Below the pieces are notes generated by a model that had not been told where the DNA came from, did not search any database, and saw only the letters and a list, made by a program, of their open reading frames with translations. DNA of 64,000 nucleotides. It comes from Selaginella tamariscina. Its lineage: Eukaryota; Streptophyta; Lycopodiopsida; Selaginellales; Selaginellaceae. Positions within the stretch are counted from its first letter, which is position 1. The number at the start of each line of letters is the position of its first letter. The stretch spans positions 115,655 to 179,654 of the forward strand of contig PUQB01000162.1 in the NCBI GenBank assembly GCA_003024785.1. The letters run 5' to 3'. Position numbers and translations under genes: made by a program. This document shows positions 23,761 to 55,565 of the stretch, piece after piece.

Positions 23761-23764
23761 AAGA

Positions 23765-25083: not shown

Positions 25084-28000
25084 GAAGCAAAAGCGAGGCA
25101 AGAGAGGAGAACCATCTAATGTAGCAAAGGAGGATCCTCCAGTGACTCAGTCTGGAGTAGTAGTACCAGTTGAGCAAGAGCAGCCTCCACCAACCATCAC
25201 AGATTTCCCGGAGAGCTCGTCGCAGTTGCCTCCTTCATCCGCTGAGGTTGCAGTCCTGAACGAGCAAGTGCAGATGACAGAGGCAGTTGAAGCTAGCGAG
25301 GACGACTTGGAGGAGGCAGTCAGCAAAAAGAGAGGCCGCGGGAAAGCTGATTCAAAAGGCAAGAAGGCGAAGAGCGATAAGGAGCCGAAGGAGTTATACA
25401 GCATACCGGCGAGCCTGCATTTGGAGAGCTCAGCAAACCTGCTCGACAAAATTACTATCAAGGGACTTGGTGATCCTCCTGATGTGCCCATCTGTAGAAT
25501 ACATTCAACGAGGTGGTTCGACGAGTGAACCCAGGGGACTTGGACAGGCTGGTGTCATCGTTGAAGAAGGCTGGTTATCTACGCAACACGGCCTTGTTCA
25601 TTCTGTCCATCGGAGATCGACTCACTGCTGAGGAGCTATCGGAGCTGTCGAAGGACACGATTCAGTACGAGCAGCACCGGTCTTTCGAGCAAGCTCTTAC
25701 TCAGCCGGAGTACAAACAGTGGGCTTCAAGGCTCTCAAACAGGAAGTTTAGCTGCTGGGACGGGAACCATAGGCTACAGGCTTTGCAGAAGCTGTACCGG
25801 AGGATGCAGAGGACAACCAGCGATGGGCTATTCGCGTTCGATCGAGTTTCATCTCCACGGAGAACCTCGACATTCTTCAACTGGTTTCGATGTTCCAATC
25901 GATTAACATGTGAGTATTTTCTTTTCTTTTTGTTAAGAGTTTAGACTTACAGTTTCGTTGAACAGATCTTCAGCAACATCTGTGGAAACAACGCTACCAC
26001 ATATTCTCCTCGCTGTAAAGGCGGTCTGCACTAGTACAAAGGAACTCAGAAAATCCTCGAGTCACTCACGGAGGTTGATCGTCTTGAGGTGCGGAAGTGG
26101 AAGGAGAGTTCACAGGAAAGACGGCTTGGCATCCTCTTCCGAACCTGATCTGCGCAAAGATCCTTTTCAAGGTAACCTCCGATTTAATTTATAGGAAAGA
26201 ATTTTTAACTTATTCTATGTGCAGAACGAGATCGACGATGATCTCGACAGAGCAGTCACCAGTGCTAAGGGCAATCACAGGTTGAGGTGAACCTGAAGCA
26301 GCTAGTGTACAAGAAGCATGACAAGCGTATGCACAAGTTCCTCTCCATCATAGACCCAGACTTGGGGGAGGAGTGGTTCCAGAAGGTGACAAACATCTCT
26401 CATAAGCAGTGTCGCTGGATGGGCATTGAGAAGCTGTATGCGATGTCAAGGCGAAGATTCCAAACATGCTGCGACTCCGATATTGAACAAGCTCACCCGT
26501 CTCGAATCCAAGGCAGAACAACAGACACTTGGGCTACCGGGCATGCAGGACAAAGAGTGGATCAAGTGGTTCACCTTGGACTTATATTGGAAGGCTGTGC
26601 GCGAGGAAGCCATTCAGATCCTTAAGGGGTTGCGAGAGGATGGTGAAGAAGTTGGAACGGATGTCGACTTCATGAGCTGGTTTGACGAGATGAGAACTCG
26701 GAGCAAGTGCCTGGTCTTTCAGCCCTTCCATGACTGCATACGGTTCACTTATTCGATGGAGCCGAATGAGTTTCTGGAGCGTGAGGAATCTGCGCGTCGG
26801 ATGATATGGAGGTAAGCTTTCAATCCAGCATTGCTACTGTCTGACTTTGTGTTACAGGTTCATACTGGCGAAGAAAATGCACCGTCCCATACGATGAAGC
26901 TGTGGACAGATCATACAAGCGAGCCTCACATGTGGTCGAAGAGCAGAGGAGCTCTAACACCGTTCGAACGGGAGCATGTTCCATTCTGGCTCGACTGTCC
27001 GTCGCAACAGCCACCAGCTTGGGAGAGCTCACTATTCGACATGCACGCAATGATCTACCAGCGATTGTTTGGGAGCCAGAGAAGTAGAGGCTATCAAGAA
27101 GAGCAAGATGAAGAAGACGGTGCGGAAGACAACTACACCTGCAAAGGGATCGGGAGCGGGACCAAGCTCTTCTACAGCACCTCCGCCGGCATTCGACTTT
27201 ACAATCAATGAGGTGCAGCCACTTGTAGCTAGTTTGGACATCAAGGACGACCTGATGACCTTCATCCCGACCCTGGCTGCATCCCGTGGATCCTACGACC
27301 TAGCTGTGTGCGACATGGAGGAGATGAGCAGGTCTTTCTTCGAGCCGGGTGCTTCCCAGACAGAGGTGTACACCAAGCTCCGACAACAGGTTGACAGACT
27401 ACATACTGAGTCACAAACGTGTTCCAGGAAGTGGTAGGTGAATACGGCTTCAACCTCATCATCCTCGACTTGCCCAATGAGCTTGTATATGGAGGTGCTA
27501 GCATCAACAAGGACATTGTGCAGCTAGATCCGGTGAAGTTTGAGGAGGCCTTGCAGTTCAGTGGAATGCACTTGGCAGCGAGTGGTTTCATGGTCGTCTT
27601 CGCGAGTTCTCCTTCTGTTTCGGCGGTGATTCAGGCGGCTGCAGTAATCAACTTGGAGGTTGCAGGGACTTACAGCGTCTACCGTGCACGAGGCTGGGGA
27701 TACCGTGACAAAATTAAGGTAAGCTAGCTATTCAAGTTCAAGTTTAACTTGGTCTATGTGGCAGGATAACTTGTTAGTTCTCTTGGTGCTGCAAAGCTCT
27801 GAGAAGAAGTCGAAGAGGCCAAACCCTCTGGCGTTGACGAACACGATCCTCGTCGACACTGCCGACCGTTATCAGGAGGCTTGGTAAGGAAGTACTTTGC
27901 TTGTTTATCCTAATGGAAGTTTGTGCAGGATATGATTCAACCGAAGAGTGTTCGACTCATGCAGCTTTTGATCGAGCGTCTCAGTAGACCTGGCGACCTA

Positions 28001-28222
28001 GTCTGGGATATTGGTTCCGGAACCGGGTCATCGTTGTTAGCTGCCGTCGAGCTCGGAAGGAATATTATAGGAACCGAGAAGAGTTTCGAACTCTCTAGGT
28101 TGGCAACAAACAAGCTGCAGAGAACATTAGACCAGAAGAATTACCTACTCAAACACCTCCACGTCCAAGCGTAACTGGTGGTTCGAGAACTGCAGCTTTA
28201 CTTAAGATGAAGAAGAAACTTT
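25084..28222 (+). pseudogene. ParB-like/DNA methyltransferase fusion, copy 1
   Basis: Exon blocks are 25084-25909, 25966-26171, 26225-26811, 26858-27718, 27765-27883 and 27929-28222, with GT-AG borders. In order the protein shows a Lys-rich nuclear-signal-like tract (KKRGRGKADSKGKKAK), a ParB-like domain with NPGDLDRLVSSLKKAGY and CWDGNHRLQAL, a helical middle region of about 300 residues, a second basic tract (KKSKMKKTVRK), then a methyltransferase module with YGFNLIILDLPNEL (motif IV position) and LVWDIGSGTGSSLLAAVELG (motif I). Motif IV before motif I marks the beta class of amino-methyltransferases. The start codon exon is on the other strand, and a few frame changes occur, so this copy is broken. 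Its coding sequence is nearly identical to copy 2. Confidence 0.82.
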
Positions 28223-28417
28223 AGCTAATGTATATTGAGTAATAAATTAAGCTAATATAAAAAAAATAAAAGAAATACAACAGTTTTAATAGAATTCTTT
28301 TTTGCCGACTGAGGCCAATACTGCCGACCAGAAAGAATATTCCAAAATATTCTAGAATATTCTGAATATTCGAGCCCAGGCCTCCTGGGCCCCAAGCCTC
28401 CAAAATGGCGGCACTCC

Positions 28418-33060: not shown

Positions 33061-33298
33061 AACCAGATGCTTAACAATAATGTCTGCATGTGTATACGGC
33101 ATGCCATAACTAGAGAGAGTGCCTATGCTGTATGGGGAGGAGCAAGATAGCAAGCCTAATTCCTGCACCCAACAGCGTACTTGGCATAAACACTAGGATC
33201 AACATGATGATCACATTAGACAAATTATGTACTGGGTATATGTCTATGTGTACATGAAAATATGTACATATGGACACAAATACACATGCATATACGAG
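33061..33298. other. Spacer between hAT and MULE copy 2
   Basis: A short open stretch (NNNVCMCIRHAITRESAYAV) crosses 33061-33150 but is not recognised. The rest is AT-rich. Confidence 0.4.
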
Positions 33299-33361
33299 GG
33301 TCTCGGCAAAAAGGAAGCTCCGGCTCAGGGCTTCATATTATTCTAGTATATTCGTGGATAT

Positions 33362-33418
33362 TCCAGGTATATTCTAGCATATTCTAGAATATTCTCAAGA
33401 ATATCTAGAATATATAAG
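33362..33418 (+). promoter_or_regulatory. Heat-shock-element-like array, copy 2 left end
   Basis: CATATTCTAGAATATTCTC followed by AAGAATATCTAGAATATATAAG keeps the TTC/GAA alternation seen in copy 1. The corresponding right-end array is at 41493-41532 (ATTCTAGAATATTCTAG). Confidence 0.35.
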
Positions 33419-33474
33419 TTTTTTTAATATGCTGACTGGCTTAATAAAGCATTATCCTAAACCCTAAACCATTT

Positions 33475-36400
33475 ATCCTTGTAGCACCGGTGGGTTATGA
33501 ACTCTGCTGCAATTCACCAACAAACAGTGGACCTCCATCTCACTGAGCGATTGCCTTTGTAGAAAATATGTGACGTCCGAGTTCAAGCCAAGCACACGGA
33601 TGTAGATGAAGTACATGTGTACACATGGGCTCCAACTTTTGCTCTTATGAAAGGTAGAACAACTGCATGTAGGATAAGTACTAATATCACCTTTGCAGAG
33701 TCATTTCCTACTGACACAACGAAAGCCTCCTTCCGTCCTCTAACTATCACTTCAACATTTCTCATAAGACCTAAAAACGTCTTGTCCTTGTGGAAATTCT
33801 TCTCTTGTTCCTTAGACATTTTTGTTGGAGTTCGGACCATACGTCCTTTGAAAGGTGGAATTGTTGTAGATCCAGCTCCACGTGGTGACGAAGGTGTTTT
33901 GTCCTTCTGACCCTCATATACTCTTCTTGCCATCCCCTGTAAACCTTCCAGAACAAAGCTTGCATCTTGTAGTTCTCTGACTTCTTCACTTGTCAGCTTC
34001 ATTTCCTTGAGCACAGGCCAAACCGTTGGTGGTGTTGGAATTCGTGACTGAAGAATTTTGCCATTTTGACCGCGTGAAACACCCTGAATCTTTTGGGCAG
34101 AAACACATCATCTGTTGTACATACTCCTTATTCCCCAAGGCATCAATGTACATTCGTTTTCCATAGAATCCTGGTGCTGGCACTCTGCTTGGATAACCGA
34201 TTGGTTTTCCACACAGAGCATTTCCTTCCTGATTCATCCCAAACACTTAACCTTACTAGATGCTCCGATTCGTCTGATGGCCCACTCTGTTTGAGCAATC
34301 TCTCTCTCCAAAACCTCTTTGAACCTTAACCTCTTTCTCCTATTGTTTTTAATCCACTTGCTCTGTCTACTCTACATCATGTCTGTGTGAATGTCGAGCA
34401 TCAGACTGTTTTGTTCCTGTGAGTGTTCTCCTAACATTTTGCACTCGAATGTTAGTGGTACTAGTGAACTCCGGGCTGGTCAAGTGTTCCTCGCCTTCCA
34501 CCAGATTGATAATTGTTGATGGAGATACACTTTTTCCCTCAGAGAGTTTGCGTTGCACTCGTTTCAACAGAGTTTCCTTCGAAGGACCTGACCCTATATA
34601 CCTCCCTTCTTATTGCCGCTTTCACCTTCGCACTTTGCATAATTGCATCGGTGAGGTCTAACATTGTCGCCTCCAGCAGTGGTACTCTTTTGGCCAATCT
34701 TGCTCTTCTTGCTCTCGCGTGAATCACTTCAGCATTGTTTGTAGTTGGAACGCTTGCGAGTCCTTCTGTCATGTCTCCCAGTTCTGCCATGGAGATGTGG
34801 TCCTCATGCCTGATCCACCAAGACAGCCATGTCTTTAAAGCTTGAATGTTTGACGCTCGTCCTTCCCAAAAAGACTCGAAATTGCTAGTTGTTCTTTCTT
34901 AGATTGTTCATTCAATGCTGCAGGCCAAGCATGAGCAAGCTTCATGTGTTCTTCGTGATGTTCTTCTGCGATCCATTCTTTGTCACCTGAACACGGATTG
35001 CATAAAGTGAAACAGACAGCTTCTTTCCCTCCCTTTCATCTTTTCTCCGTTGTTGAATACTTGGCGCAAGGCTATCCATATCGCTCCAGCCTCATCCGAC
35101 ATGAAACCAGCAAAGTTAAGATTTTTCAAACCCTGCTTCATACAAACCTTTAGCATTGTGTTCAAGAACTTTAGCACTGCAACATTATCTTCGCAGCACA
35201 TATCTGCGTAAGCTATAGTCACCATGGATTTGACACTGTAAGAGAGCATTAGATAACTAAGATTAGAAAGTGTTATAAAGAGTTCTACAACTTACAATGG
35301 GTCATAAAGGTGTATTCCAATTGTCGCCCAATCTGGTATACGGTGCGTGTGGTCCAGAACAACCCATTGATCATGAAGGTCTCCTCCACTTTGACACCTT
35401 CTGATGTAGTCAACTCCTGAACCCAGTCCCTCAACTGTCATTTTGAAGATCAGAGGCTGCTCCTCAACACCATGCAGTTCCATCCCTGAAACACTTTAGA
35501 GAGGGTTACGAGGGTCTTCTGGAGCTAAAGACAAAGTTGCCAATACCTTTCATTCACGTCATACATGTTCTGCACCTACGTCCAACTTCGCGGCTCCTAG
35601 ACGAAGTGGACATTGAAGTTTTCCGACTGAACTCCAACTTCAAATGTGTCTCCTTCTGTCTTAATTGTGTAATCCAGTCTCGAGTCCTAAAGGAAAGGTC
35701 ACATCAGTGTGTAGAGATCTAAAGAAAAATACCTTCGATGGTTTGTTAAAGGTTCAAGTTTTGAGAGTAAACCAGTGTATGAGACTTATCCTTCTTCCTT
35801 GAAAAGTTCTTCAAAGATGAGCTCACGCGCAGCTTGAAACTCAATCACTCGTTGATTGGTTCGCGGACTGCTCTTTACCAAGTTGCTGACACTAGATCTG
35901 GCATGCTGAACGTTTGAAGCTGACACTGAGGGGTTGACTGGATGCTGATGAACACCTCTGTGAATGAACAACCTTGTAAAAGAAATGTCGTTTGGCAGAA
36001 TGTAGTACACATAAGCCGGACAAGTGTGCGCTAGCAATGGCTCCTCTCCACAATGCTTACATTTCATGCCTATTACTTTGCTTGTCTCAGTTGTCTTTGC
36101 CTTCTCCACAGCACCCTTGAAGTGACATTCATTTGCTTTCTTCTCAAAAGCCAAGTAGGGGCAGGTAGGATTGATGCATTTGAGATGTCCGACACATGAA
36201 CTTCGACTGACTCGCGCCGGAACATGCCAGTGTGTTGTGCTCAGGGTGTGTCCAATGGTAGTAGCCATCCTTGCGATTCATCCCCAAGTACTTCTCTGTG
36301 CTTTCTTTCTTTGGGGGAAGTTCATAAATGACATTTCCATTGTATATTTGCGGTAGTTCAGAGACTCGTTTAACTTCAGACGAACCAATGAGATCCTTCC

Positions 36401-36770
36401 CTATCCTACATTTGTCTGCTCTTAGAAGGCACACCAACATGGATTCCTCACGCTCCTTTGTCTGCAACCTGAACAACGGGCCCTTTGCCGGCACAATGTG
36501 TAAAAGACAAACTGGTTTGATGCATTGCTTTCTGGTAACAACTCCACATCTTCTCCAGAACTCACAGAAACTGAAATCAATTGAACCACATGTATACTGA
36601 ACCAACAAGGAATGTTGAAAGCAAAGTGAAGATCATGTTCAAACACAAAAGCATTTCCATCTTCATCGACTGGGAAATCTTTGTCAATGCCTTCATAGTA
36701 ACTCTGGCCATGACAACGCAAGAAGAAAGCTCGGTGGTTTAGGAAAGCAAAGCAAAAGATTAAACACACT
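33475..36770 (-). pseudogene. MULE transposase, copy 2
   Basis: The longest transposase copy. The N-terminal part (about 36770-36280) is present only here and in part in copy 3: YYEGIDKDFPVDEDGN, then in an overlapping frame CRIGKDLIGSSEVKRV and YNGNVIYELPPKKES. The Cys/His cluster CVGHLKCINPTCPYL and MKCKHCGEEPLLAHTC follows. The catalytic set is WVVLDHTHRIPDW (Asp 1), FMSDEAGAIWIAL with CLFHFMQSV (Asp 2 and C-x2-H), and TTNNAEVIH (Glu). The C-terminal SWIM finger reads CSCSTFHKSKSWSPCVH at about 33665-33615, a good CxC...CxH fit. Introns are at about 35236-35297 and 35686-35733. Some frame changes interrupt it. SWIM fingers are typical of MuDR-like transposases and support the assignment. 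Confidence 0.85.
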
Positions 36771-36779
36771 CTAGTTCGC

Positions 36780-37185
36780 CAAAAAAATTATAATTGTTGA
36801 TAATAAACGTGAATACACTTTTGTATATAATTAATTCTACGTTGCCCAGCTCACAGTGTTTTAATGCTGTCCTCTCTAGTATCACCGATTTAATTTAATT
36901 ACTACCTTTTATGATTTGAAATATCTTCACCTTTACCAATTATTCACATATTTTAATATAAACCCTAAATATTAATGTCACATTTATTCCGTAGGGTTCA
37001 CTGTTTTCATTGCGGCTAGGGTTTTTTGGTAGATAGGGTTTACTGTTTCCACTGCGGCTAGGGTTTTTTCAATCTCAGATCTGAGTTCTGAAATCTCCTC
37101 CAAGGGGCTTGAGAGGAGCGGCGCCATTCATTTTGAGTCGATTCGTGCAGTGCCCAAGTAAATCAATTGAGATTTCTGTCGATTT
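36780..37185. other. AT-rich leader next to the transposase start
   Basis: AT-rich DNA with a direct repeat of GGTTCACTGTTTTCATTGCGGCTAG-like sequence (about 36997 and 37039). It probably holds the transposase promoter. No gene was seen. Confidence 0.4.
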
Positions 37186-38115
37186 AGATTGTCGGCACCA
37201 TCCTGCTCAGTCGGCGACCACAAGGTATGTGCAATTTCTGTATTTTATGATTTGCGGCTCAAATAATTTATTTTTCAGAATAAAGGGTCTTCCCATTTGT
37301 GCCGACTGAGAGCGACGGCACCATCCTGGTTCAGTCGGCAGCCACAAGGTATTTTCGATTTGTTTATTTTTTTCTTTGCGGCTCAAGTATCGTATCACAA
37401 TGTTTTTTTTCTAGAGTTAATGTGTCTTCCCGTTTGTGTCGGAATCCCAGAGATAAAGGCTTCCCATTTGTGCCACTGAGAGTGACGGCACCATCCTGGT
37501 TCAGTCGGCAGCCACAAGGTATTTTCGATTTGTTTATTTTTTTCTTTGCGGCTCAAGTATCCGTATCACAATGTTTTTTTTTCCAGAGTTAATGTGTCTT
37601 CCCATTTGTGTCGGAATCCCAGAGATAAAGGGTCTTCCCATTTGTGCCGACTGAAGTGACGGCACCATCCTGGTTCAGTCGGCAACCACAAGGTATTTTG
37701 AATTTGTTTATTTTTTTCTTTGCAACTCAAGTATCCGTATCACAATGTTTTTTTTTCCAGAGTTAATGTGTCTTCCCATTTGTGTCGGAATCCCAGAGAT
37801 AAAGGGTCTTCCCATTTGTGCCGACTGAAAGTGACGGCACATCCTGTTCAGTCAACAACCACAAGGTATTTTGAATTTGTTTATTTTTTGCTTTGCGGCT
37901 CAAGTATTTCTTTTTTCAGAGTTAATGGGTCTTCCCATTTGTGCCGTCTGAGAGGGACGGCACCATCCTAGCTCAGTCGGCACCATTATCTCTTCAGTGC
38001 CGTCTGAGAGGGTCGGCACCAACCTGTCTCAGTCGGCAGGATATGCTCTTTACATCTCTGTGCTAACTGAGAGGGTCGGCACCAGCTAGCTTGAGTCGGC
38101 AACCACAAGGTTAGT
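37186..38115. repeat. Central hairpin repeats of MULE copy 2
   Basis: About five units of roughly 150-200 bp alternate a hairpin (TGCCGACTGAGAG and TTCAGTCGGCA around GACGGCACCATCC) with CACAAGGTATTTTCGATTTG, TTTGCGGCTCAAGTATCC and AGAGTTAATGTGTCTTCCC. Each unit contains CACAAG/GTATTT and a TTTTCCAG site, that is, donor-like and acceptor-like signals, so the units may be transcribed and spliced out of the leader of the second gene. The last units (37920-38110) use variant words GAGAGGGTCGGCACCA and CTAGCTTGAGTCGGC. Confidence 0.85.
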
Positions 38116-38184
38116 CATCTTTTTTTTTTTTTTTTGTCTCCTAATCAATTGACTTGTGTGTTTGCTTTTCCAGAGTTTAAAAAA

Positions 38185-41100
38185 ATGGTGAGAGCTTCAA
38201 AACGTCTACTAGAACTTGCCCTGATGAAGAGCCACGAAAAGAGAAGAGGATATCGAAGCACAAGCAGGAAAGAGAGGAGAACCATCTAATGTAGCAAAGG
38301 AGGATCCTCCAGTGACTCAGTCTGAAGTAGTACCAGTTGAGCAGGAGCAGCCTCCATCAACCATCACAGATTTCCCGGAGAGCTCGTCGCAGTTGCCTCC
38401 TTCATCCGCTGAGGTTGCAGTCCTGAACGAGCAAGTGTGATGACAGAGGCAGTTGAAGCTAGCGAGGACGACTTGGAGGAGGCAGTCAGCAAAAAGAGAG
38501 GCCGCGGGAAAGCTGATCCAAAAGGCAAGAAGGCGAAGAGCGATAAGGAGCCGAAGGAGTTATACAGCATACCGGCTAGCCTGCATTTGGAGAGCTCAGC
38601 GAACCTGCTCGACAAAATTACTGTCAAGGGACTTGGTGATCCTCCTGATGTGCCCATCTGTAGAATGCATTCGAACGAGGTGGTTCGACGAGTGAACCCA
38701 GGGGACTTGGACAGGCTGGTGTCATCGTTGAAGAAGGCTGGTTATCTACGCAACACGGCCTTGTTCATTCTGTCCATCGGAGATCGACTCACTGCTGAGG
38801 AGCTATCGGAGCTGTCGAAGGACACGATTCAGTACGAGCAGCACCGGTCTTTCGAGCAAGCTCTTACTCAGCCGGAGTACAAACAGTGGGCTTCAAGGCT
38901 CTCAAACAGGAAGTTTAGCTGCTGGGACGGGAACCATAGGCTACAGGCTTTGCAGAAGCTGTACCGGAGGATGCAGAGGACAACCAGCGATGGGCTATTC
39001 GCGTTCGATCGAGTTTCATCTCCACGGAGAACCTCGACATCTTCAACTGGTTTCGATGTTCCAATCGATTAACATGTGAGTATTTTCTTTTCTTTTTTAA
39101 GAGTTTAGACTTACAGTTTCGTTGAACAGATCTTCAGCAACATCTGTGGAAACAACGCTACCACATATTCTCCTCGCTGTAAAGGCGGTCTGCACTAGTA
39201 CAAAGGAACTCAGAAAATCCTCGAGTCACTCACGGAGGTTGATCGTCTTGAGGTGCGGAAGTGGAAGGAGAGTTCAACAGGAAAGACGGCTTGGCATCCT
39301 CTTCCGAACCTGATCTGCGCAAAGATCCTTTTCAAGGTAACCTCCGATTTAATTTATAGGAAAGAATTTTTAACTTATTCTATGTGCAGAACGAGATCGA
39401 CGATGATCTCGACAGAGCAGTCACCAGTGCTAAGGGCAATCCACAGGTTGAGGTGAACCTGAAGCAGCTAGTGTACAAGAAGCATGACAAGCGTATGCAC
39501 AAGTTCCTCTCCATCATAGACCCAGACTTGGGGGAGGAGTGGTTCCAGAAGGTGACGAACATCTCTCATAAGCAGTGTCATGGGCATTGAGAAGCTGTAT
39601 GCGATGTCAAGATTCCAAACATGCTGCGACTCCGATACTTGAACAAGCTCACCCGTCTCGAATCCAAGGCAGAACAACAGACACTTGGGCTACCAGGCAT
39701 GCAGGACAAAGAGTGGATCAAGTGGTTCACCTTGGACTTATATTGGAAGGCTGTGCGCGAGGAAGCCATTCAGATCCTTAAGGGGTTGCGAGAGGATGGT
39801 GAAGAAGTTGGAACGGATGTCGACTTCATGAGCTGGTTTGACGAGATGAGAACTCGGAGCAAGTGCCTGGTCTTTCAGCCCTTCCATGACTGCATACGGT
39901 TCACTTATTCGATGGAGCCGAATGAGTTTCTGGAGCGTGAGGAGTCTGCGTCGGATGATATGGAGGTAAGCTTTCATTCCAGCATTGCTACTGTCTGACT
40001 TTGTGTTACAGGTTCATACTGGCGAAGAAAATGGCACCGTCTCAGACGATGAAGCTGTGGACAGATCATACAAGCGAGCCTCACATGTGGTCGAAGAGCA
40101 GAGGAGCTCTAACACCGTTCGAACGGGAGCATGTTCCATTCTGGCTCGACTGTCCGTCGCAACAGCCACCAGCTTGGGAGAGCTCACTATTCGACGTGCA
40201 CGGCAATGATCTACCAGCGATTGTTTGGGAGCCGGAGAAGTAGAGGCTATCAAGAAGAGCAAGATGAAGAAGACGGTGCGGAAGACAACTACACCTGCAA
40301 AGGGATCGGGCGGGACCAAGCTTCTTCTACAGCACCTTCGCCGGCAATCGACTTTACAATTAATGAGGTGCAGCCACTTGTAGCTGGTTTGGACATCAAG
40401 GACGACCTAATGACCTTCATCCCGACCCTGGCTGCATCCCGTGGATCCTACGACCTGGCTGTGTGCGATATGGAGGAGATGAGCAGGTCTTTCTTCGAGC
40501 CGGGTGCTTCCCAGACAGAGGTGTACACCAAGCTCCGACAACAGGTTGACAGACTACATACGGTGAGTCACAAACGGTGTTCCAGGAAGTGGTAGGTGAA
40601 TACGGCTTCAACCTCATCATCCTCGACTTGCCCAATGAGCTTGTATATGGAGGTGCTAGCATCAACAAGGACATTGTGCAGCTAGATCCGGTGAAGTTTG
40701 AGGAGGCCTTGCAGTTCAGTGGAATGCACTTGGCAGCGAGTGGTTTCATGGTCGTCTTCGCGAGTTCTCCTTCTGTTTCGGCGGTGATTCAGGCGGCTGC
40801 GTAATCAACTTGGAGGTTGCAGGGACTTACAGCGTCTACCGTGCACGAGGCTGGGGATACCGTGACAAAATTAAGGTAAGCTAGCTATTCAAGTTCAAGT
40901 TTAACTTGGTCTATGTGGCAGGATAACTTGTTAGTTCTCTTGGTGCTGCAAAGCTCTGAGAAGAAGTCGAAGAGGCCAAACCCTCTGGCGTTGACAACAC
41001 GATCCTCGTCGACACCGCCGACCGTTTTCAGGAGGCTTGGTAAGGAAGTACTTTGCTTTGTTTATCCTAATGGAAGTTTGTGCAGGATGATGATTCAACG

Positions 41101-41381
41101 AAGAGTGTTCGACTCATGCAGCTTTTGATCGAGCGTCTCAGTAGACCTGGCGACCTAGTCTGGGATATTGGTTCCGGAACCGGATCATCATTGTTAGCTG
41201 CTGTCGAGCTCGGAAGGAATATTATAGGAACCGAGAAGAGTTTCAACTCTCTAGGTTGGCAACAAACAAGCTCGCAGAGAACATTAGACCAGAGGAATTA
41301 CCTACTCAAACACCTCCACGTCCAAGCGTAGCTGGTGGTTCGAGAACTGCAGCTTTACTTAAGATGAAGAAGAAACTTTAG
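38185..41381 (+). pseudogene. ParB-like/DNA methyltransferase fusion, copy 2
   Basis: Starts at ATG 38185 (MVRASKRLLE), just after an intron-like T-rich tract and TTTTCCAG. Exons are 38185-39075, 39130-39336, 39390-39965, 40012-40875, 40922-41039 and 41085-41381, the last closing KMKKKL and a stop. A predicted intact family member would be about 1000 residues. Domains: basic nuclear-signal-like tract (about residue 110), ParB-like domain with EVVRRVNPGDLDRLVSSLKK and CWDGNHRLQAL, a helical middle (EEWFQKVTNISHKQC, DKEWIKWFTLDLYWKAV), HVPFWLDCPSQQPPAW, and the methyltransferase module with LIILDLPNEL and DIGSGTGSSLLAAVELG, then IIGTEKSF. The DPPY-type catalytic tetrad is DLPN here. ParB-methyltransferase fusions are known in phages and bacterial mobile elements. 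The role here, element or host DNA N6-A or N4-C methylation, is inferred. A few indels break this copy. Confidence 0.85.
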
Positions 41382-41576
41382 CTAATGTATATTGAGTAAT
41401 AAATTAAGCTAATATAAAAAGAATAAGATAGAAATACAACAGTTTTACTAAATTCTTTTTTGCCGACTGAGGCCAATACTGCCGACCAGAAAGAATATTC
41501 TAAAATATTCTAGAATATTCTAGAATATTCGAGCCTAGGCCTCCTGGGCCCCAAGCCTCCAAAATGGCGACACTCA

Positions 41577-42774: not shown

Positions 42775-42829
42775 TATTACATGTGCATGAATATATACGA
42801 TGTTAGTAGTACACAGCTGTAGACAAAGT

Positions 42830-45800
42830 ACATGTGTACACATGGGCTCCAACTCTTACTCTTATGAAAGGTAGAACAACTGCATGTAAGATAAGTATTA
42901 ATAGTCACCTTTGCAGAGTCATTTCCTGCCGACACAACGAAAGCCTCCTTCTGTCCTATAACTGTCACTTCAACATTTTTCACACGACCTAAAAACGTCT
43001 TGGCCTTGTGAAATTCTTCTCTTGTTCCTTAAACATTTTTGTTGGAGTCCGGCCATACGTCCTTCGAAAGGTGGAATTGTTGTAGATCCAGCTCCACGTG
43101 GTGGCGATGGTGTTTTGTCCTTCTGACCCTCATCTACTCTTCCTACTGTCCCCTGTAAACCTTCCATAACAAAGCCTGCATCCTGTAGTTCTCTGACCTC
43201 CTCACTTGTCAGCTTTGTTTCCTTGAGCACAGGCCAAACTGTTGGTGGTGTTGGAATTCGTGACTGAAGAATTTTGCCGTTTGGCCACGTGAAACACCCT
43301 GAATCTTTTGGGCAGAACCACATCATATGTTGTACATATTCCTCATTCCCCAAGGCATCATGTACATTCATTTTCCATAGAATCCTAGTGCTGGCACTCT
43401 GCTTGGATAATCGATTGGTTTTCCACATTGAGCAGTTCCTTCCTGATTCATCCCCAAACACTTAACCTTATTGGATGCTCCGATTCATCTGATGGCCCAC
43501 TCTGTTTGTGCAATCTCTCTCTCCAAAACCTCTTCGAACCTTAACCTCTTTCTTCTGTTGTTTGGACCACCCGCTCTGTGTACTCTACATCATGTTGTGT
43601 GAACGTCGAGCATCAGACTGTTCTGTTCCTGTGACTGTTCTCCTAACAGTTTGCACTCAACGTTAATGGTACTTGAACTCCGGGCTGGTCAAGTGTTCCT
43701 CGTCTTCCACCAGATTGATAATTATTGATGGAGATACACTTTTCCCCTCAGAGAGTTTGCGTTGCACTCATTTCAACAGAGTTTCCTTCGAAGGACCTGA
43801 CCCTGTATACCTCCCTTCTATTGCCGCTTTCACCTTCGCACTCTGCATAACTGCATCGGTGAGGTCTAACATTGTCGCCTCAGTAGTGGTACTCTTTTGG
43901 CCAATCTTGCTCTTCTTGCTCTCGCGTGAATCACTTCAGCATTGTTTGTAGTTGGAACGCTCGCGAGTCCTTCTTCTGTCATGTCTCCCAGTTCCACCAT
44001 GGAGATGTGGTCCTCATGCCTGATCCACCAAGACAGCCATGTCTTCAAAGAACGAATGTTTGACGCTCGTCCTTCCCAAAAAGACTCGAGAATTGCTAGT
44101 TGTTCTTTCTTAGATTGTTCATTCAGTGCTGCAGGCCAGGCACGAGCAAGCTTCATGTGTTCTTCGCATGTTCTTCTGGATCCATTTCTTTGTCACCTGA
44201 CGCACGGATTGCATAAAGTGAAACAGACAGTTCTTTCCCTCCCTTTCATCTTTTCTCTGTTGTTGAATACTTGGCGCAAGGCTATCCATATCGCTCCAGC
44301 CTCATCCGACATGAAACCAGCAAAGTTACATTCTCCAAACCCTGTTTCTTACAAACCTCTAGCATTGTGTTCAAGAACTTCAGCACTGCAACATTATCTT
44401 CGCGGCACATATCTGCGTAAGCTATAGTCACCATGGATCTGACACTGTAAGAGAACATTAGATAACAAAGATTAGAAAGTGTTATGAAGAGTTCTACAAC
44501 TTACAATGGGTCATAAAGGTGTATTCCAATTGTCGCCCAGTCTGATACTGCGTGTGGTCCAGAACAACCCATTGATCATGAAGGTCTCCTCCACTTTGAC
44601 ACCTTCTGATGTAGTCAACTCCTGAACCCGTCCCTCAACTGTCATTTTGAAGATCAGAGGCTGCTCCTCAGCACCATGCAGTTCCATCCCTGGAACATGT
44701 ATGACGTGAATGAAAGGTATTGGCAACTTTGTCTTCAGCTCCAGAAGACCCTCGTAACCCTCTCTAAAGTGTGTCTCCTTCTGTCTTGATTGTGTAATCC
44801 AGTCCCGAGTCCTAAAGGAAAGGTCACGTCAGTGTGTAAAGATCTAAAAAAATACCTTCGATGGTTTGTTAGAGGTTCAAGTTTTGAGAGTAAACCAGTG
44901 TACGAGACTTCTCCTTCTTCCTTGAAAAGTTCTTCAAAGATGAGCTCATGCGCAACTTGAAACTCAATCACTCGTTGATTGGTTCGCGACTACTCTTTAC
45001 CACGTTGCTGACACTAGATCTGGCACGCTGAACGTTTGAAGCTACACTGAGGGGCTGACTGGATGCTGATGAACACCTCTATGAATGAACAACCTTGTAA
45101 AAAAATGTCGTCTGGTAGAATGTAGTATACATAAGCCGACAAGTGTGCACTAGCAATGGCTCCTCTCCACAATGCTTACATTTCATGCCTTTTACTTTGC
45201 TTGTCTCAGTTGTCTTTGCCTTCTCCACAGCACCCTTGAAGTGACATTCATTTGCTTTCTTCTCAAAAGCCAAGTAGGGGCAGGTAGGATTGATGCATTT
45301 GAGATGTCCGACACATGAACTTCAACTAACTCACGCCGGAACATGCCAGTGTGTTGTGCTCGGGTGTGTCCAATGGTAGCAGCCATCCTTGCAATTCATC
45401 CCCAAGTACTTCTCTGTGCTTTCTTTTTTGGAGGAAGTTCGTAAATGACATTTCCATTGTATATTTGCGGTAGTTCAGAAACTCATTTAACTTCAGACGA
45501 ATCAATGAGATCCTTCCCTATCCTACATTTGCTAGCATGGATTCCTCACGCTCCTTTGTCCATAACCTAAACAACGGTCCCTTAGCCGGGCACAATGTGT
45601 AAAAGACAAACTGGTTTGATGCATTGCCTTCTAGTAACAACTCCACATCTTCTCTAGAACTCGCAAAAACTGACATCAATTGAACCACATGTATACTAAA
45701 CCAATAAGAAATGTTGAAAGCAAAGTAAGATCATGTTCAAACACAAAAGTATTTCCATCTTTATTGGCTGGAAAATCTTTGTCAATGCCTTCATAGGTAA

Positions 45801-45960
45801 CTCTGGCCATACAAACACAAGAAGAAAGCTCGGTGGTTTAGGAAAGCAAAGCAAAAGATTAAACACTCTCGTTCGCCAAAAAAAATTATAATCGTTGATA
45901 ATAAACGTGAATACACTTTTGTATATAATTAATTCTACGCTGCCCATAGTGTTCTTAATG
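42830..45960 (-). pseudogene. MULE transposase, copy 3
   Basis: Same order of parts as copy 2: LAFEKKANECHFKGA and MKCKHCGEEPLL, FMINGLFWTTR (the overlapping frame of the first Asp block), the FMSDEAGAIW region at about 44310, TTNNAEVIHARARRARL at about 43950, NEEYVQHMMWFCPKDSGC at about 43350, and EAFVVSAGNDSAKVT then CSCSTFHKSKSWSPCVHM at the truncated end. Many small indels and stops make it non-functional. The final residues after the SWIM finger are lost with the left end. Confidence 0.8.
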
Positions 45961-46089
45961 CTGTCCTCTCTAGTATCACCGATTTAATTTAATTACTACC
46001 TTTTATGATTTGAAATATCTTCACCTTTACCAATTATTCACATATTTTAATATTAACCCTAAATATTAATGTCACATTTATTCTGTAGG

Positions 46090-46850
46090 GTTCACTGTTT
46101 TCATTGCGGCTAGGGTTTTTTCTATCTCAGATCTGATATCTGAAATCTTCTCCAAGGGGCTTGAGAGGAGTGGCGCCATCCATTTCGAGTCGATTCGTGC
46201 AGCGCCCAAGTAAATCAATCAAGATTTCTGTGCCGATTTAAATTGTCGGCACCATCCTGCTCAGTCGGCGGCCACAAGGTATGTGCAATTTCTTTATTTT
46301 ATGATTTGCAGCTCAAATAATTTATTTTTCAGAGTTAAAGGGTCTTAGAATTTGTGCCGTGTGAGAGAGATGCCCATCCTGGTTCAGTTGGCAACCACAA
46401 GGTATTTTCAATTTATTTATTTTTTGCTTTGCGGCTCAAGTATCTGTATCATAATGTTTTTTTTTCTAGAGTTAATGGGTCTTCCCATTTGTGTCGGAAT
46501 CCCAGAGATAAAGGGTTTTTCCATTTGTGCCGACTGAGAGTGACGGCACCTTCCTGCTTAGTCAGCAGCCACAAGGTATTTTCAATTTGTTTATTTTTTG
46601 CTTTGCGGCTCAAGTATCCATTTCACAAATTTTTTTTTTCCAAGTTAATGGGTCTTCCCATTTGCCGTCTGAGAGGGACGGCACCATCCTAGCTCAGTCA
46701 GCATACTTCTTATATTATCTCTTCAGTGCCGTCTGAAAGGGTCGGCACCAACCTGTCTCAGTCAGCAAGATATGCTCTTTTACTTTTCTGTGCCGACTGA
46801 GAAGGTCGACACCATCTAGCTTGAGTCGGCAGCCACAAGGTTAGTCATCT
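46090..46850. repeat. Central hairpin repeats of MULE copy 3
   Basis: Three to four units carry the same words as copy 2: GTGCCGACTGAGAG, GACGGCACC, TTTGCGGCTCAAGTATC and GTTAATGGGTCTTCCC. The last hairpins before the second gene read GTCTGAAAGGGTCGGCACC and GCCGACTGAGAAGGTC. Confidence 0.8.
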
Positions 46851-48601
46851 TTGATTTTTATTTTTTTTTTGTCTCCTAATCAGTTGACTTGTGTGTTTGC
46901 TTTCCAGAATTTACAAAATGGTGAGAGCTTCAAAACGTCTACTAGAGACTGCACTTGATGAAGAGCCACGAAAAGAGAAGAGGATATCGAAGCATAAGTG
47001 AGGCAAGAGAGGAGAACTATTTAATGTAGCAAAGGAGGATCCTCCAGTGACTCAGTCTCAAGTAGTGCTAGTTGAGCAGGAGCAGCCTCCATCAACCATC
47101 ACAGATTTCCCGGAGAGCTCGTCGCAGTTGCCTCCTTCATCCGCTAAGGTTACAGTCCTGAACGAGCAAGTGCAGATGACAGAGGCAGTTGAAGCTAGCG
47201 AGGACAACCTGGAGGAGGCAGTCTGCAAAAAGAGAGGCTGCGGGAAAGCTGATCCAAAAGGCAAGAAGGCGAAGAGCGATAAGGAGCCGAAGGAGTTATA
47301 CAGCATACCGGCTAGCCTGCATTTGGAGAGCTCAATGAACTTGCTCGACAAAATTACTATCAAGGGACTTGGTGATCCTCCTGATGTGCCCATCTATAGA
47401 ATGCATTCGAACGAGGTGGTTCGATGAGTGAACTTAGGGGACTTGGACAGGCTGGTGTCATCGTTAAAAAGGCTGTTATCTACGCAACACGGCCTTATTC
47501 ATTTTATCCATCAGAGATCCACTCACTGCTGAGGAGCTATCGGAGTTATTGAAGGACATGGTTCAGTACGAGCAGCACCGGTCTTTTGAGCAAGCTCTTA
47601 CTCAACCGGAGTACAAACAGTGGGCTTCGAGGCTCTCAAACCGGAAGTTCAGCTGCTGGGACGGGAACCATAAGCTACAGGCTTTGCAGAAGTTCTACTG
47701 GGAGGATGCAGAGGACAACTAGTGATGGGCTATTCACGTTCGATCGAGTTTCATCTCCACGGAGAACCTCGACAATCTTCAACTGGTTTCGATGTTCCAA
47801 TCGATAAACATGTGAGTATTTTCTTTTTCTTTTCATTAAGGGTCTAGACTTACAGTTTCATTGAACAGATCTTCAGCAACATCTATGGAAACAATGCTAC
47901 CACATATTCTCCTCACTGTAAAGGCGATCTGCACTAGTACCGAAGGAACTCAGAAAATCCTTGAGTCACTCACGGAGGTTGATCGTCTTGAGGTGCGGAA
48001 GTGGAAGGAGAGTGCAACAGGAAAGACGGCTTGGCATCCTCTTCCAAACCTGATCTGCACAAAGATCCTTTTCAAGGTAACCTTCGATTTGATTTATAGG
48101 AAAGAAGTTTTTAATTTATTCTATGTGCAGAACGAGATCGATGATGATCTCGACAGAGCAATCACCAGTGCTAAAGGCAATCCATAACTTGAGCTGAACC
48201 TGAAGCAGCTAGTGTACAAGAAGCATGACAAGCGTATGCATAAGTTCCTCTCTATCATAGACCCAAAGTTGGAGGAGTGGTTCCAGAAGGTGACAAACAT
48301 CTCTCATAAGCAGTGTCGCTGGATGGGCATTGAGAAGCTGTACGCGATGTCAAAGGCGAAGATTTCAAACATGCTGTGACTCCGATACTTAAACAAGCTC
48401 ACCCGTCTCGAATCCAAAGCAGAACAACAGACACTTGGGCTACCAGGCATGCAGGACAAAGAGTGGATCAAGTGGTTCACCTTGGACTTATATTGGAAGG
48501 CTGTGCGCAAGGAAGCCATTTAGATCCTTAAGGGGTTGCGAGAGGATGGTGAAGAAGTTGGAACAGATGTCACTTCATGAGCTGATTTGATGAGATGCGA
48601 A

Positions 48602-49270
48602 TGGTTGACGATGGCCCGACACCATCACACGGCTAGCCGACGGGACGTCCACTGGCGCGGATGAGTGACGGAACGAAGTGCCGGTACTTCAGGTAGATTG
48701 ATGGCGATCGATGTCAGGCGGCAGCGTAACCAGGCGTAGATCCGATCGTTCGGATCAACTACTCAGGGTACAAAGGACAGCACACGTGGGGAGGCGCATA
48801 AATGTGGCAGGCAGGACTCTGTCACATGGCGGCAGGCCTGTGGGAAGGTGCCACCTGTACCTAGGGTCTAGCGGTAGGTAACCCATATATAAGCCGGAAG
48901 GTGAGTAGTGGGTCGGGGTTTTTGGAGTCAGGTTTGCGTCTTATATCTTACTCCAATGTCGGAGATAGTTTATACTCAGATAGGCAATATATATCCATTT
49001 TCCTTCTAGTCACCCCACAAGTGTGCGTTCCCCGCTTGCCCAACTCCTGGGCCCTGCAACACTCTCTGCCCAGTCATCTAGGTACAACTCCCCTCAACTA
49101 TACATGGGCCCTCATGGCGTCTGGGTAGAGGCCATCCGATACCTTCCATTACTCCTGAGGTAAGGACCGCTTGCCGGCCGAACCCCCGGGGTGGATGCCT
49201 TCAACAGTCTTGGCGACCACTGCAGCTTCCTTAAAAGCACCACATTGGCCGGTGGAGTCCCCGACACCCA
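48602..49270 (+). repeat. Left LTR
   Basis: Starts TGGTTGACGATGG and ends GACACCCA (TG...CA). A TATA-like CCATATATAAGCCGG lies at about 48882. It pairs with 55566-56239. No tRNA primer-binding site was recognised directly after it. Confidence 0.85.
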
Positions 49271-51022
49271 TTTTGGCGACGACGGAGGGATAGATAGTAC
49301 ACTGATGGAGTTCATTGTAGCAAGTAGAGTGGCATCCCAACGAAGAGCCGGGATTAACTCATTCGAACAATTGAGATTGACGAGCAACAGCTGGCCAGGA
49401 GAATGCGACGGGCCGGCCGAGGGAGATTAATGGAAGGCAGTGAGGCACCTCGGTTGCCGCAATCGGCCCTACCTACCCAAGGGAACGACGGTAATGCCGC
49501 ATGGCCAAATCTTCGAGCAGCGGTAAACTCGGCACACCAACGGCAGAGGCGGTCGCACGCTGCTGACGACGAAGAAGGATATGAAGGAACCGTAGCACGT
49601 CCGGACAACAATCCAGGCACAGCAGCATGCAGGTACGAACAGCACCCGGACGGGCGACTACGCCTGACAGTAACCTACAATGCAGAGTGGGATGGATGGC
49701 AAGACGACGAAAGCCCTCCACCTCTCAACATAGGTGAAAAAGTGACGGCCACAAAGAGCCCCCATACCAACAAGCAAGAACCAGTGCTTGACAAGTACCC
49801 CCGAAGGAGGAAACCTCGCCCAGGATAGCCCCAGGAAAGGGTAGGCCTGCGACGGAGGCAAGAATCTCGAAGGGTGAAAGCAACACAGATAGCGACGGGG
49901 ACGTGAGCCAGAAGCCCAGCGTGACCAGTGCCATGATGGAGGTAAGATAGGAAACCCAGAGCCATCGTCACCCATCAGGGTGATGCAAGGGCCCGTGTTT
50001 TCCCGAAAGAGGGGAGGAAGAGCCTCATCCGGAAGGCCCCCGTAGGGAGGGGCATTGCCAACAGGGCAACCTCTACACTAGGAGTTCAGCCGATCGGACG
50101 ATGCAGCAGGTCAGGGTGGTTACCAGGATGAGAACCCAAGGCTTTGAAAGGCCGAGGTACATATGGGACGACCGCCTGCGCGGAGGCGACTGGACGTTGA
50201 TGAGATGACGGACTGGGAGGAGGCACCAGAAAGAGGGCTGCACAGTGGCTACCTTGGAGAAGGGACAGGAGGAATTCGTCCAAGGGCAAGAGAGATTCGC
50301 CCGAGCAACTAGTATCGCACCGGCCCCGCAAGAGAAATCCGACAGGGCACACGGCAGAGCCGCAACCATCACTAGACGGGGGGATACCGTCTCGGGGCGA
50401 GGAGGAATCGCCCCATCGATCATGACCATCTAGACGTCACGGGGGGATTTCGCTCACGGTCATACAAAACTACTCACTAGAGGATGGAAAACCGTCCAGC
50501 CAAGGCCGCGCCACCAACCGTCAGGTTGGTCCCGCGGCAGGGGCCCCCGAGGGATAGCTGGGAGGAGCTCGTCCTCATCACCCACCCTCAACGAGAGGGC
50601 CGGGCCGCGAGGAAGGAGAAAGGTGCTCAGAATATCAGGGACATGGACTACACCACTTCCGAAGCGGAGGGTCCGGATCGGAAACTTCCCATGCACAACG
50701 GGACGCCATGGGAACCGATGACCTGGTCACCTTATTAGCCTGAGTGCTCAATCGGATGTAGGAGAGCACCGTAATAGTGCCCTTACCTGCGTTCCAGCGA
50801 AGGGGGAAGACGCAGACCAACACGTACACAAGTTCGAACAGGTTTGTGAACTTCGGAGTGTGAGCGACAATCACAAGAAGTTGAGTGCCTTCGCATGCAC
50901 TCTAGACAAGAAGGCACACGCTTGGTGGATGCGATTCCACGAGGCAAACGAAGGAGCCCGCTGGGAAAACCGCACGAAGGGCGTTTCTGGATACCTTCCG
51001 GGAGGAAAAGAGTGAAGAGGAG

Positions 51023-51283
51023 GTGATCCACAAGCTAACGAGCTTGAAACAGAAAGCAAGAGAGTCGGTCGACGAGTACACGGTCCGCATGCTGGGATAT
51101 ATCGCCTGGCTAAGAGATGCTCCAGTTGACCTAACCAAGAAAATGTGGTATCGAAAGGGAATGCGGCTGGAGATCCACAAGTGGATCGGCTTGGATGACG
51201 ATCGGACGTTCGACAAGTTACTCTGGTATGCCAAGAAGGCCGAAAAGTGGGAAGCTGAAAGATGCCAAGAAAGGAAGGCATAG
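51023..51283 (+). mobile_element. Gag-like region of the LTR fossil
   Basis: Reads KLTSLKQKARESVDEYTVRM and RLEIHKWIGLDDD, typical of the capsid part of plant gypsy gag, preceded in other frames by ALDKKAHAWWMRFHE (about 50910). Fossil part, not an intact gene. Confidence 0.6.
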
Positions 51284-51439
51284 GACATATCAGACGAGGA
51301 GGAGGTGAACGATACCACATCATATGAGGAAAACCTCTCGGATGCTCCAAGACCGACCAGAAAGGAGACACGGTCAGGTACCAAGGGACATAGGCAGCTG
51401 CAGCGGGGGGAAACCCTACGGGCGGCCACACGAAAGGAA

Positions 51440-51850
51440 GACTTATCCACGACACTGGCTCAAATGGGTTACACTGCACGGGGGGATAAGTACTGTCGAG
51501 TATGTAACATCCGCGAATCTCACAACACGGACGATTGCTACCGGCTTGCCAAACTCCTGAGCAAAAGGCCACCACAGGTAGCCACACTGACGGTAGAACG
51601 AGGGACCGAAGGGGGGGCAGATGGCCGAAGGAGCTACGGCCGTAAGACGGACGGAGACAACCAATCCTGTAGGAGGTCCCGTTCGGGAGACTGGGATCGT
51701 AGGTCCCATTCCCGAGAACGGCCACCGTACCGACCCAGGTATGGCGACAGAGAGAGACAACCGGAACGCAAGGAGGTGTTGTGCACACTGTGCGGAGGCC
51801 CACACCCGCTCTATCGATGTTCATGGGTACCAATGCTAGAAGCGCAAGCA
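51440..51850 (+). mobile_element. Zinc-knuckle region of the LTR fossil
   Basis: Two Cys/His knuckles are visible, CRVCNIRESHNTDDC (about 51497-51541) and CTLCGGPHPLYRC (about 51784-51822), with an Arg-rich stretch between them. They fit a nucleocapsid-like nucleic-acid-binding part. Confidence 0.65.
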
Positions 51851-52340
51851 GTCGGCGTCGCCAAAATGAGTAACGGGCAGATCCTTGCAACCCCAACTCC
51901 AACCTCCACACCGCAAGTGAACCAAGTAACGGTGGTACTGCCAGAATAGGACGGCAGAATGGACATAGTACCACAGGCTCCCTTAGCGGACGAAACAAGG
52001 GAAACGCAAAGGCGGAGAACCAGGGGAGCGTGAAGACGCGAAAAGAGAAGACAGGCAACAAAAACCCCGGTCTTAAAGCAGTGGGTAAAGAAGCAAATGC
52101 AAGGACTGACAGTCTCGGGACCCGTGGAGCCCAGCCAAGGCCAAGAATCGCTAAGAAAAGTAAGGAGAAGGTGAAACCGCGCATTCATAAGAGGGGAGGC
52201 CCAGACGGAGTCAAAACAAGAAACGATGTTGGTTCCCACCACACGATGGGGAATCGGGTACGACCAGCAGCAAGGCCCCCACCACGAGGCACTGCAACCA
52301 CAGTGGACTATGTGAACAATGTACCAACTATCCCGTACGC

Positions 52341-55560: not shown

Positions 55561-55565
55561 GCATC

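What the first reader, a model, noticed from the sequence alone, without database searches (positions are those of the whole stretch)
38185..41381. A MULE transposon family carrying a spliced ParB-like/DNA methyltransferase gene
Seen: one gene reads a ParB-like domain (NPGDLDRLVSSLKKAGY, CWDGNHRLQAL) and then a beta-class methyltransferase (motif IV position, then DIGSGTGSSLLAAVELG). It sits inside an element with MULE ends and a MULE transposase, in three copies. Known: ParB-methyltransferase fusions belong to phages and bacterial mobile DNA, and some eukaryotic transposons have picked up cytosine methyltransferases. Inferred: a DNA transposon captured an N6-adenine or N4-cytosine methyltransferase, possibly to mark or protect its own DNA or to escape silencing. 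I do not know of a described MULE with this gene.
Basis: partly seen in the sequence, partly recalled or inferred. Interest (0 to 1): 0.95.

Follow-up and report, generated by a model that had tools for sequence, protein, structure and literature searches.

The report
Plant transposon carrying bacterial-type DNA methyltransferase
A large, recently active family of jumping genes in a plant genome carries, next to its transposase-like gene, a gene with a methyltransferase domain of a type best known from bacteria and their viruses, and evolution has kept that gene working, so it probably helps the element to spread.

Summary
Three copies of one transposon lie in the window, at about 19.55-28.42, 33.30-41.58 and 42.82-57.96 kb. 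Each has a transposase-like gene on the minus strand and a divergent 6-exon gene. Exons 4-6 of that gene encode a beta-class amino-methyltransferase domain (PF01555, E 4.9e-9; profile-profile 98.7% over 202 columns). The genome holds at least 310 loci of the gene, in at least two families that share intron positions and the two-gene layout. Between families, synonymous sites are saturated while replacement sites are not, so the gene has been under purifying selection beside the transposase. The ends carry target-site duplications of about 9 bp.

The word CAGTCGGCA recurs in the intergenic arrays of both families, and its core recurs just inside the ends. I propose it as the element's binding or modification site.

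Three points limit the claim. The ParB assignment is weak (no Pfam hit). The MULE assignment fits the 9-bp duplications, but every profile test failed. Motif IV is DLPN, not (D/N/S)PP(Y/F/W), in both families, so catalysis is uncertain.

Nearest precedents are DIRS retrotransposons with Dam-like methylases, retrotransposons with DNMTs, and VANDAL/VANC anti-silencing. I found no description of this one.

The parts
33298..41575 (+). Element copy B, whole: imperfect terminal inverted repeats (GGGTCTCGGC... / ...CACTC) and two divergent genes
   Evidence: Sequence; alignment of copies; ends and duplications in sister copies. The duplication of copy B itself is imperfect.
38185..39075 (+). Exon 1 of the accessory gene, copy B: basic N-terminus and ParB/Srx-like stretch (VPICR...NPGDLDRLVSSLKKAGYL...CWDGNHRLQALQKLY)
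   Evidence: a 177-aa stretch of exon 1 (from L018) is 100% identical and open in 75 of 150 scored genome hits
39130..39336 (+). Exon 2
   Evidence: intron position conserved in family 2
39390..39965 (+). Exon 3, middle region with no family match
40012..40875 (+). Exon 4: linker and first half of the methyltransferase domain, motif IV as DLPN
40922..41039 (+). Exon 5: between the motif IV half and the motif X/I half of the methyltransferase domain
41086..41381 (+). Exon 6: motif X (QPKS) and motif I (DIGSGTGSS) of the methyltransferase; the PF01555 match lies here
33591..36790 (-). Transposase-like gene of copy B (limits approximate): zinc-finger-like N half, D...SD...CLFH...TTNNAE core, cysteine-rich C part
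   Evidence: Reading of three copies; family 2 homologue 68% identical
36900..38184 (.). Intergenic tandem array with CAGTCGGCA / TGCCGACTG sites (10 of the copy's 11 AGTCGGC sites lie within 1.5 kb upstream of the ATG)
41462..41468 (+). Subterminal GCCGACT site near the right end
   Evidence: position conserved in other copies
19550..28417 (+). Element copy A, whole; 9-bp duplication GCGATATGC on both sides; gene 5' end inverted at 24154-24415
42820..57956 (+). Element copy C: left end missing, stops in the accessory gene, interrupted by an LTR retrotransposon at about 48606-56235

Best explanation
This is a family of terminal-inverted-repeat DNA transposons that makes target duplications of about 9 bp and encodes two proteins: a DDE-like transposase and an accessory protein of about 990 aa with a ParB/Srx-like N part and a beta-class amino-methyltransferase domain. 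The accessory gene is a standing, selected part of the element (shown). I infer that the accessory protein acts on the element's own DNA at CAGTCGGCA sites, which sit in the region between the divergent genes and just inside both ends. There it modifies the DNA or occupies it so that the promoter and ends stay usable by the transposase and escape host silencing. In effect it works like VANC of VANDAL elements, but with a methyltransferase fold. Steps shown: gene structure, domain, selection, target-like arrays. Steps inferred: who binds the sites, whether methyl groups are transferred, and the effect on silencing.
For: MTase domain: PF01555 4.9e-9 and phrog_67 3.4e-11; hhalign 98.7% over 202 columns against 7 phage/plasmid beta-class MTases. 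Two families with the same layout and 5 of 5 shared intron positions. pS 0.77-0.92 versus pN 0.10-0.34 in 7 of 7 segments of both genes. 73 of 74 linked transposase/MTase hit pairs are in the same divergent order. Ten of 12 family-1 elements with both ends share 8 bp or more as target duplication. CAGTCGGCA occurs in the arrays of both families (repeated 5 or more times in one element of each; random expectation 0.002), with subterminal core sites at each end in 8 of 9 family-1 and 2 of 2 family-2 elements. VANC precedent: passages of PMC5735166.
Against: Motif IV is DLPN; in the rotifer N4CMT, changing Ser and Tyr of SPPY to Ala abolished activity (PMC8885841, passages). The half with motif IV is the least conserved of the seven segments (49% versus 71% for exon 6). 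The ParB-like part has no significant match. Nothing shows which protein binds CAGTCGGCA; the transposase is the obvious other candidate. Copies show C-to-T decay weighted to CG and CHG, so they seem to have been methylated by the host and are not immune. I had no expression data.
Confidence: 0.42

Rival explanations
1. The protein is an active amino-methyltransferase that writes 6mA or 4mC on the element's own DNA, to time transposition after replication or to mark new copies.
For: Motif I (DIGSGTGSS) and motif X are present and identical or nearly so in both families, exon 6 being 71% identical; the domain aligns over its whole length. Precedent: Dam-like methylases in DIRS elements (PMC5890265, passages).
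Against: Motif IV DLPN lacks the aromatic residue in both families.
Confidence: 0.3
2. The methyltransferase fold is a dead or AdoMet-sensing scaffold, as METTL14 is (recalled), and the protein is a DNA-binding anti-silencing or transposition cofactor.
For: DLPN instead of (D/N/S)PP(Y/F/W) in both families after saturated synonymous divergence, so the change is old and kept.
Against: Motif I and X look intact.
Confidence: 0.3
3. CAGTCGGCA sites are bound by the transposase (subterminal repeats, as for Ac or En/Spm, recalled); the methyltransferase protein acts elsewhere, for example on host DNA or RNA.
For: Core sites lie 123-171 bp from the left end and 91-118 bp from the right end, where transposases often bind.
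Against: Most sites are in the intergenic array, not at the ends.
Confidence: 0.3
4. A neutral passenger gene captured once, as in Pack-MULEs.
For: MULE-like elements capture genes often (known).
Against: Purifying selection in 7 of 7 segments, presence in two old families, shared introns, at least 310 loci.
Confidence: 0.04

Closest known systems
DIRS retrotransposons with Dam-like N6-adenine methylase
   Same: Eukaryotic mobile element with its own amino-methyltransferase gene
   Different: Retrotransposon; Dam-like methylase; no ParB-like part known to me. Seen as passages in PMC5890265.
DNMT-bearing retrotransposons of dinoflagellates (LINE, DIRS) and Klebsormidium
   Same: Transposon-encoded DNA methyltransferase kept in many copies
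   Different: C5-cytosine enzyme, structurally unrelated; retrotransposons (PMC5890265, passages).
VANDAL elements with VANC (Arabidopsis)
   Same: Plant DNA transposon with transposase plus accessory gene; short motif arrayed in noncoding tandem repeats
   Different: VANC is not described as a methyltransferase; motif YAGTATTAY in same-orientation arrays (PMC5735166, passages).
MuDR (mudrA/mudrB)
   Same: Two-gene layout, duplications of 9-10 bp
   Different: mudrB is called a protein of unknown function (PMC6446971, passages); transposase here has no PF10551 match.
ParB-methylase fusions of phages and bacteria (e.g. Bce_0392)
   Same: ParB-like part before an amino-methyltransferase
   Different: Prokaryotic; here a spliced gene, a middle region of about 380 aa with no family match, and DLPN. 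Known from passages of PMC5512222 and PMC12704722; no such fusion was compared directly.
Bdelloid rotifer N4CMT
   Same: Bacterial-type amino-methyltransferase in a eukaryote; weak sequence match of the motif I part (8s9m, E 0.18)
   Different: Host gene with chromodomain, SPPY, acts in silencing transposons (PMC8885841, passages).

Membership tests
Beta-class amino DNA methyltransferase (PF01555 N6_N4_Mtase) | Profile match above the curated cut-off | tested here: met
   36.9 bits versus 26.7; family 2: 36.6 bits. Only profile positions 164-219 and 165-220 are matched.
Beta-class amino DNA methyltransferase (PF01555 N6_N4_Mtase) | Whole domain homologous, order motif IV ... X ... I | tested here: met
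   hhalign 98.7%, 202 columns, DLPN aligned with DIPY of Gordonia phage GMA4
Beta-class amino DNA methyltransferase (PF01555 N6_N4_Mtase) | Catalytic tetrapeptide (D/N/S)PP(Y/F/W) | tested here: not met
   DLPN in both families; so it has the fold but activity is not shown
ParB/Srx superfamily (PF02195) | Profile match | tested here: not met
   No ParB family up to E 10 in Pfam in either family
ParB/Srx superfamily (PF02195) | Order of beta1-helix and G-x-x-R box as in ParB | tested here: inconclusive
   hhalign finds both boxes in order when the 40-residue insert is left out; score 20.0, reached by 1 of 120 column shuffles; first half alone 1 of 120; G-x-x-R half alone 24 of 120; whole region 1 of 100
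MULE superfamily | PF10551 or other MULE profile match of the transposase | tested here: not met
   No hit; none of the 77 PF10551 places listed in the genome lies in the window's contig; hhalign against 7 MULE sequences of the same genome gives nothing (0.41%; 12 of 100 shuffles as good; single-sequence try)
MULE superfamily | Target duplication of about 9 bp | tested here: met
MULE superfamily | DDE with C-x2-H after the second D | tested here: inconclusive
   LDH...SDE...CLFH...TTNN.E seen in both families; that this is the MULE signature is recalled
MULE superfamily | Long terminal inverted repeats | tested here: inconclusive
   Imperfect, gapped local alignment of about 70-93 bp starting 9-15 bp inside the ends, in one element of each family
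VANDAL/VANC-type anti-silencing system | Accessory protein binds the arrayed motif and causes loss of 5mC | not testable with these tools
   Arrays seen; binding and methylation not measurable here

The most novel reading that the evidence does not exclude
A DNA transposon with its own self-directed DNA-modification system: the ParB-like part finds parS-like CAGTCGGCA sites (palindromes in family 2) arrayed between the genes and inside both ends, and the methyltransferase part writes a bacterial-type base (6mA or 4mC) there, licensing transposition and shielding hundreds of copies from host silencing in a plant.
Probability: 0.22. Interest if true: 0.94.

Novelty: new variant of a known kind. 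Interest (0 to 1): 0.82.

Why it matters
Methylases in eukaryotic mobile elements were known to me, and in the passages I read, from retrotransposons; here a DNA transposon with inverted-repeat ends has kept one for so long that synonymous sites are saturated, in hundreds of copies of a 300-Mb plant genome. If it acts on its own DNA, it gives a direct test of whether transposons use non-native base marks against silencing. If it is a dead enzyme turned DNA-binding cofactor, it is a new kind of accessory factor. Either answer is within reach: the candidate target is a short, defined sequence. The CG- and CHG-weighted decay of copies suggests that host methylation is the pressure to beat.

Tried and rejected
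Passenger capture: rejected by selection, shared introns and linkage. Chance methyltransferase resemblance: rejected. Bacterial contamination: rejected; a spliced gene in hundreds of places of a genome with 20 LOB-domain matches, none in 14 control genomes. Close prokaryotic donor: not found; tblastn of the 872-aa query hit 50 phage and 1705 plasmid records, and the rows listed (20 and 10) match only the C-terminal MTase part. The ParB part alone gave 3 weak hits in phages and 1 in plasmids at E up to 10. The search for related loci found no relative in viral contigs (137 pattern matches, none confirmed) or genome contigs (119, none confirmed); each scan used two short patterns only. I did not find phage ParB-methylase fusions to compare directly: the 10 phage ParB-like loci I fetched were read as ParBs without a methylase, by eye, not by a profile scan. 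Whether elements with transposase but without the gene exist is open: 76 of 150 transposase hits had no partner in my truncated lists, which cannot tell absence from truncation. The script's majority reading of 23 copies has alignment gaps that break the frame, so its stop counts are discarded.

Literature: searches (listings with titles, counts and abstract starts) and passages of 10 papers showed no DNA transposon with a ParB-like/N6_N4 methyltransferase gene. The library holds only open-licence papers; Repbase and most subscription papers were not searched.

Full report
WHAT IS THERE. The window is part of a 300.7-Mb eukaryote assembly in 1391 contigs. The LOB domain, a plant family (recalled), matches in 20 places, with none in 14 control genomes. 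The size fits Selaginella tamariscina, listed at 301 Mb in a table of PMC8732986 (passage). The contig number for that species is recalled, so the host name is an inference.

Three copies of one element lie in the window. Copy B, about 33298-41575, has both ends and both genes. In its left half, on the minus strand, is a transposase-like gene; in its right half, on the plus strand, is the gene of the finding, ATG at 38185, stop ending at 41381, with six exons. Each copy has private indels that break the frame. Other genome copies are open across exons: L018 has uninterrupted exon 1, 4 and 6 frames, and 75 of the 150 scored genome hits (1555 first-look candidates) carry the 177-aa exon-1 stretch at 100% identity without a stop (counted from the listing). 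Some of the indels in young copies may be assembly errors.

ENDS. I had both ends for 12 family-1 elements: 2 of the 3 window copies and 10 of the 20 fetched loci. Ten of the 12 share 8-13 bp at the two flanks, five of them exactly 9 bp (for instance AAATAATAA, TTTATCTTA, AGTCCTATG); the longer ones run on into the G-rich end of the element. Copy B has an imperfect pair and L028 a damaged right end. The terminal repeats are imperfect: local alignments of about 70-93 bp that start 9-15 bp inside the ends.

THE METHYLTRANSFERASE. The C-terminal piece matches PF01555 at 4.9e-9 (36.9 bits, cut-off 26.7) and phrog_67 at 3.4e-11. In the PDB the best sequence matches are MboIIA (0.00051), a putative modification methylase, DpnA and CcrM, through motif X and I. 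Profile-profile comparison with seven phage and plasmid methylases covers 202 columns at 98.7% and lays FNLIILDLPN on the motif IV strand. The motif order IV-X-I is that of the beta class (recalled). The tetrapeptide is DLPN in both families (copy C has a decayed form). In passages read, characterised enzymes have DPPY, SPPY, NPPY or DPPW, and SPPY to APPA abolished N4CMT activity (PMC8885841). Activity is therefore open.

THE ParB-LIKE PART. No ParB family is found in Pfam, PHROGs or NCBIfam; the best PHROGs match (0.0069) is to a family of unknown function in the basic N-terminal stretch. Against 12 ParB N-domains that I collected, hhalign puts VPICR...DLDRLVSSLKKAGYL on the first strand and helix; 1 of 100 column shuffles of the whole region scores as high. 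Without its 40-residue insert, the region also puts CWDGNHRLQAL on the G-x-x-R box (score 20.0; 1 of 120 shuffles as high); the first half alone gives 1 of 120, and the second half alone is not distinguishable (24 of 120). I keep 'ParB-like' as a lead.

THE TRANSPOSASE. No Pfam or NCBIfam match to a transposase; none of the 77 PF10551 places listed lies in this contig; hhalign against the genome's own MULEs is negative. The two families share LDHT...SDE...CLFH...TTNN.E, which looks like a DDE core with C-x2-H. MULE is a fair guess from this and the 9-bp duplications, not a result.

A SECOND FAMILY AND SELECTION. The PF01555 search of the genome gave 739 first-look candidates; all 150 scored exceed the cut-off. 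Three places that I read (L034, L035, L036) belong to a second family; judged by frame length and score alone, many of the 150 do. L035 and L036 have the same two divergent genes, and L035 shows five shared intron positions. Read-through proteins are 58% (accessory) and 68% (transposase) identical. L036 has an exact 9-bp duplication and L035 one with a single mismatch (read). Counting by Nei-Gojobori over seven clean segments, pS is 0.77-0.92 (saturated) and pN 0.10-0.34: ParB-like 0.29 and 0.21, middle 0.22, MTase exon 4 0.34, exon 6 0.21, transposase N half 0.29, transposase core 0.10. Both genes evolved under purifying selection together.

LAYOUT ACROSS THE GENOME. Of 150 scored transposase hits (1795 first-look candidates), 74 have a methyltransferase-gene hit within 8 kb in my truncated lists, and 73 of the 74 stand in the divergent order; the lists hold at least 310 distinct methyltransferase-gene loci. 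Of 20 loci fetched by the accessory gene, all 20 have 86% or more of that protein, 16 have 77% or more of the transposase, 2 have 52-59% and 2 none, one of these at a contig end.

THE REPEATED SITE. I compared one intergenic region of each family (L022, L035). The only word of 8 or 9 letters repeated three or more times in both is CAGTCGGCA or its parts; 21 and 10 9-mers are repeated five or more times, and the random expectation of sharing one is 0.002. In L035 it forms five perfect palindromes CCCAGTCGGCATGCCGACTGGG. Over 12 elements (10 of family 1, 2 of family 2; copy A with its rearranged array left out) there are 8-25 AGTCGGC sites each, against a mean of 0.4-0.95 in 20 shuffles each. 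In 11 of 12 all sites lie within 1.5 kb upstream of the accessory ATG or in the terminal 200 bp; in L036 the script did not find the ATG, but its 23 inner sites all lie at 3831-4428 of the element. A core site occurs 123-171 bp from the left end and 91-118 bp from the right end in 8 of 9 family-1 (each end) and 2 of 2 family-2 elements. Arrays are tandem repeats, so site numbers within a family are not independent; the weight lies in the sharing between families and in the ends.

HOST PRESSURE. Against the majority reading of 23 copies, C-to-T (both strands) is 1.95% at CG (138 of 7075), 1.1% at CHG (88 of 7822), 0.63% at CHH (138 of 22013), against 0.43% for A/T transitions (162 of 37659). 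This is the pattern expected of 5mC decay, so these copies have probably been methylated.

MECHANISM. Most likely the accessory protein is an element-encoded regulator of its own DNA. The parallel with VANC (accessory protein, short motif in noncoding tandem repeats, loss of methylation; PMC5735166 passages) is functional, not a claim of homology. Whether it transfers methyl groups is a coin toss on present evidence.

NOVELTY. Amino-methylases in DIRS elements and DNMTs in several retrotransposons are known (PMC5890265, passages); ParB-methylase fusions are known in phages and bacteria (PMC5512222, PMC12704722, passages). A terminal-inverted-repeat DNA transposon with such a gene was not found in the searches named under Tried and rejected. 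I rate it a new variant of a known kind.

Noticed in passing
window 48606-56235: LTR retrotransposon (GC-rich, retrotransposon-like frames by eye) nested in copy C; its two LTR-like ends begin near 48606 and 55571.
   Followed up: partly
window 29400-32700: hAT-like transposase gene (frames 29511-30407, 30679-31077, 31098-32030; hAT name recalled, not tested) between element copies A and B.
   Followed up: no
window 15867-17767: Large hairpin-like inverted repeat: successive arms 77-93% complementary between 15867-16640 and 16823-17767.
   Followed up: no
window 25083-28416 versus 38250-41575: The accessory-gene halves of copies A and B are 97.6% identical (500-column blocks mostly 98-100%) while their transposase halves are 94.5-95.7%, which suggests gene conversion or recombination between elements.
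   Followed up: partly
window 24154-25113: In copy A the start of the accessory gene and part of its repeat array lie inverted and multiplied (five units spaced 147-159 bp).
   Followed up: partly
window 61100-63900: Degenerate repeats rich in TATATA and TGTGTG, several families recurring along the stretch.
   Followed up: no
window 1513-1926: Fragment of a retrotransposon reverse transcriptase frame (by eye).
   Followed up: no
L037 (G000:C516:752500-761999): Pieces of the accessory gene's 5' end lie on both strands upstream of a family-1 copy, either a rearrangement as in copy A or a second broken copy.
   Followed up: no
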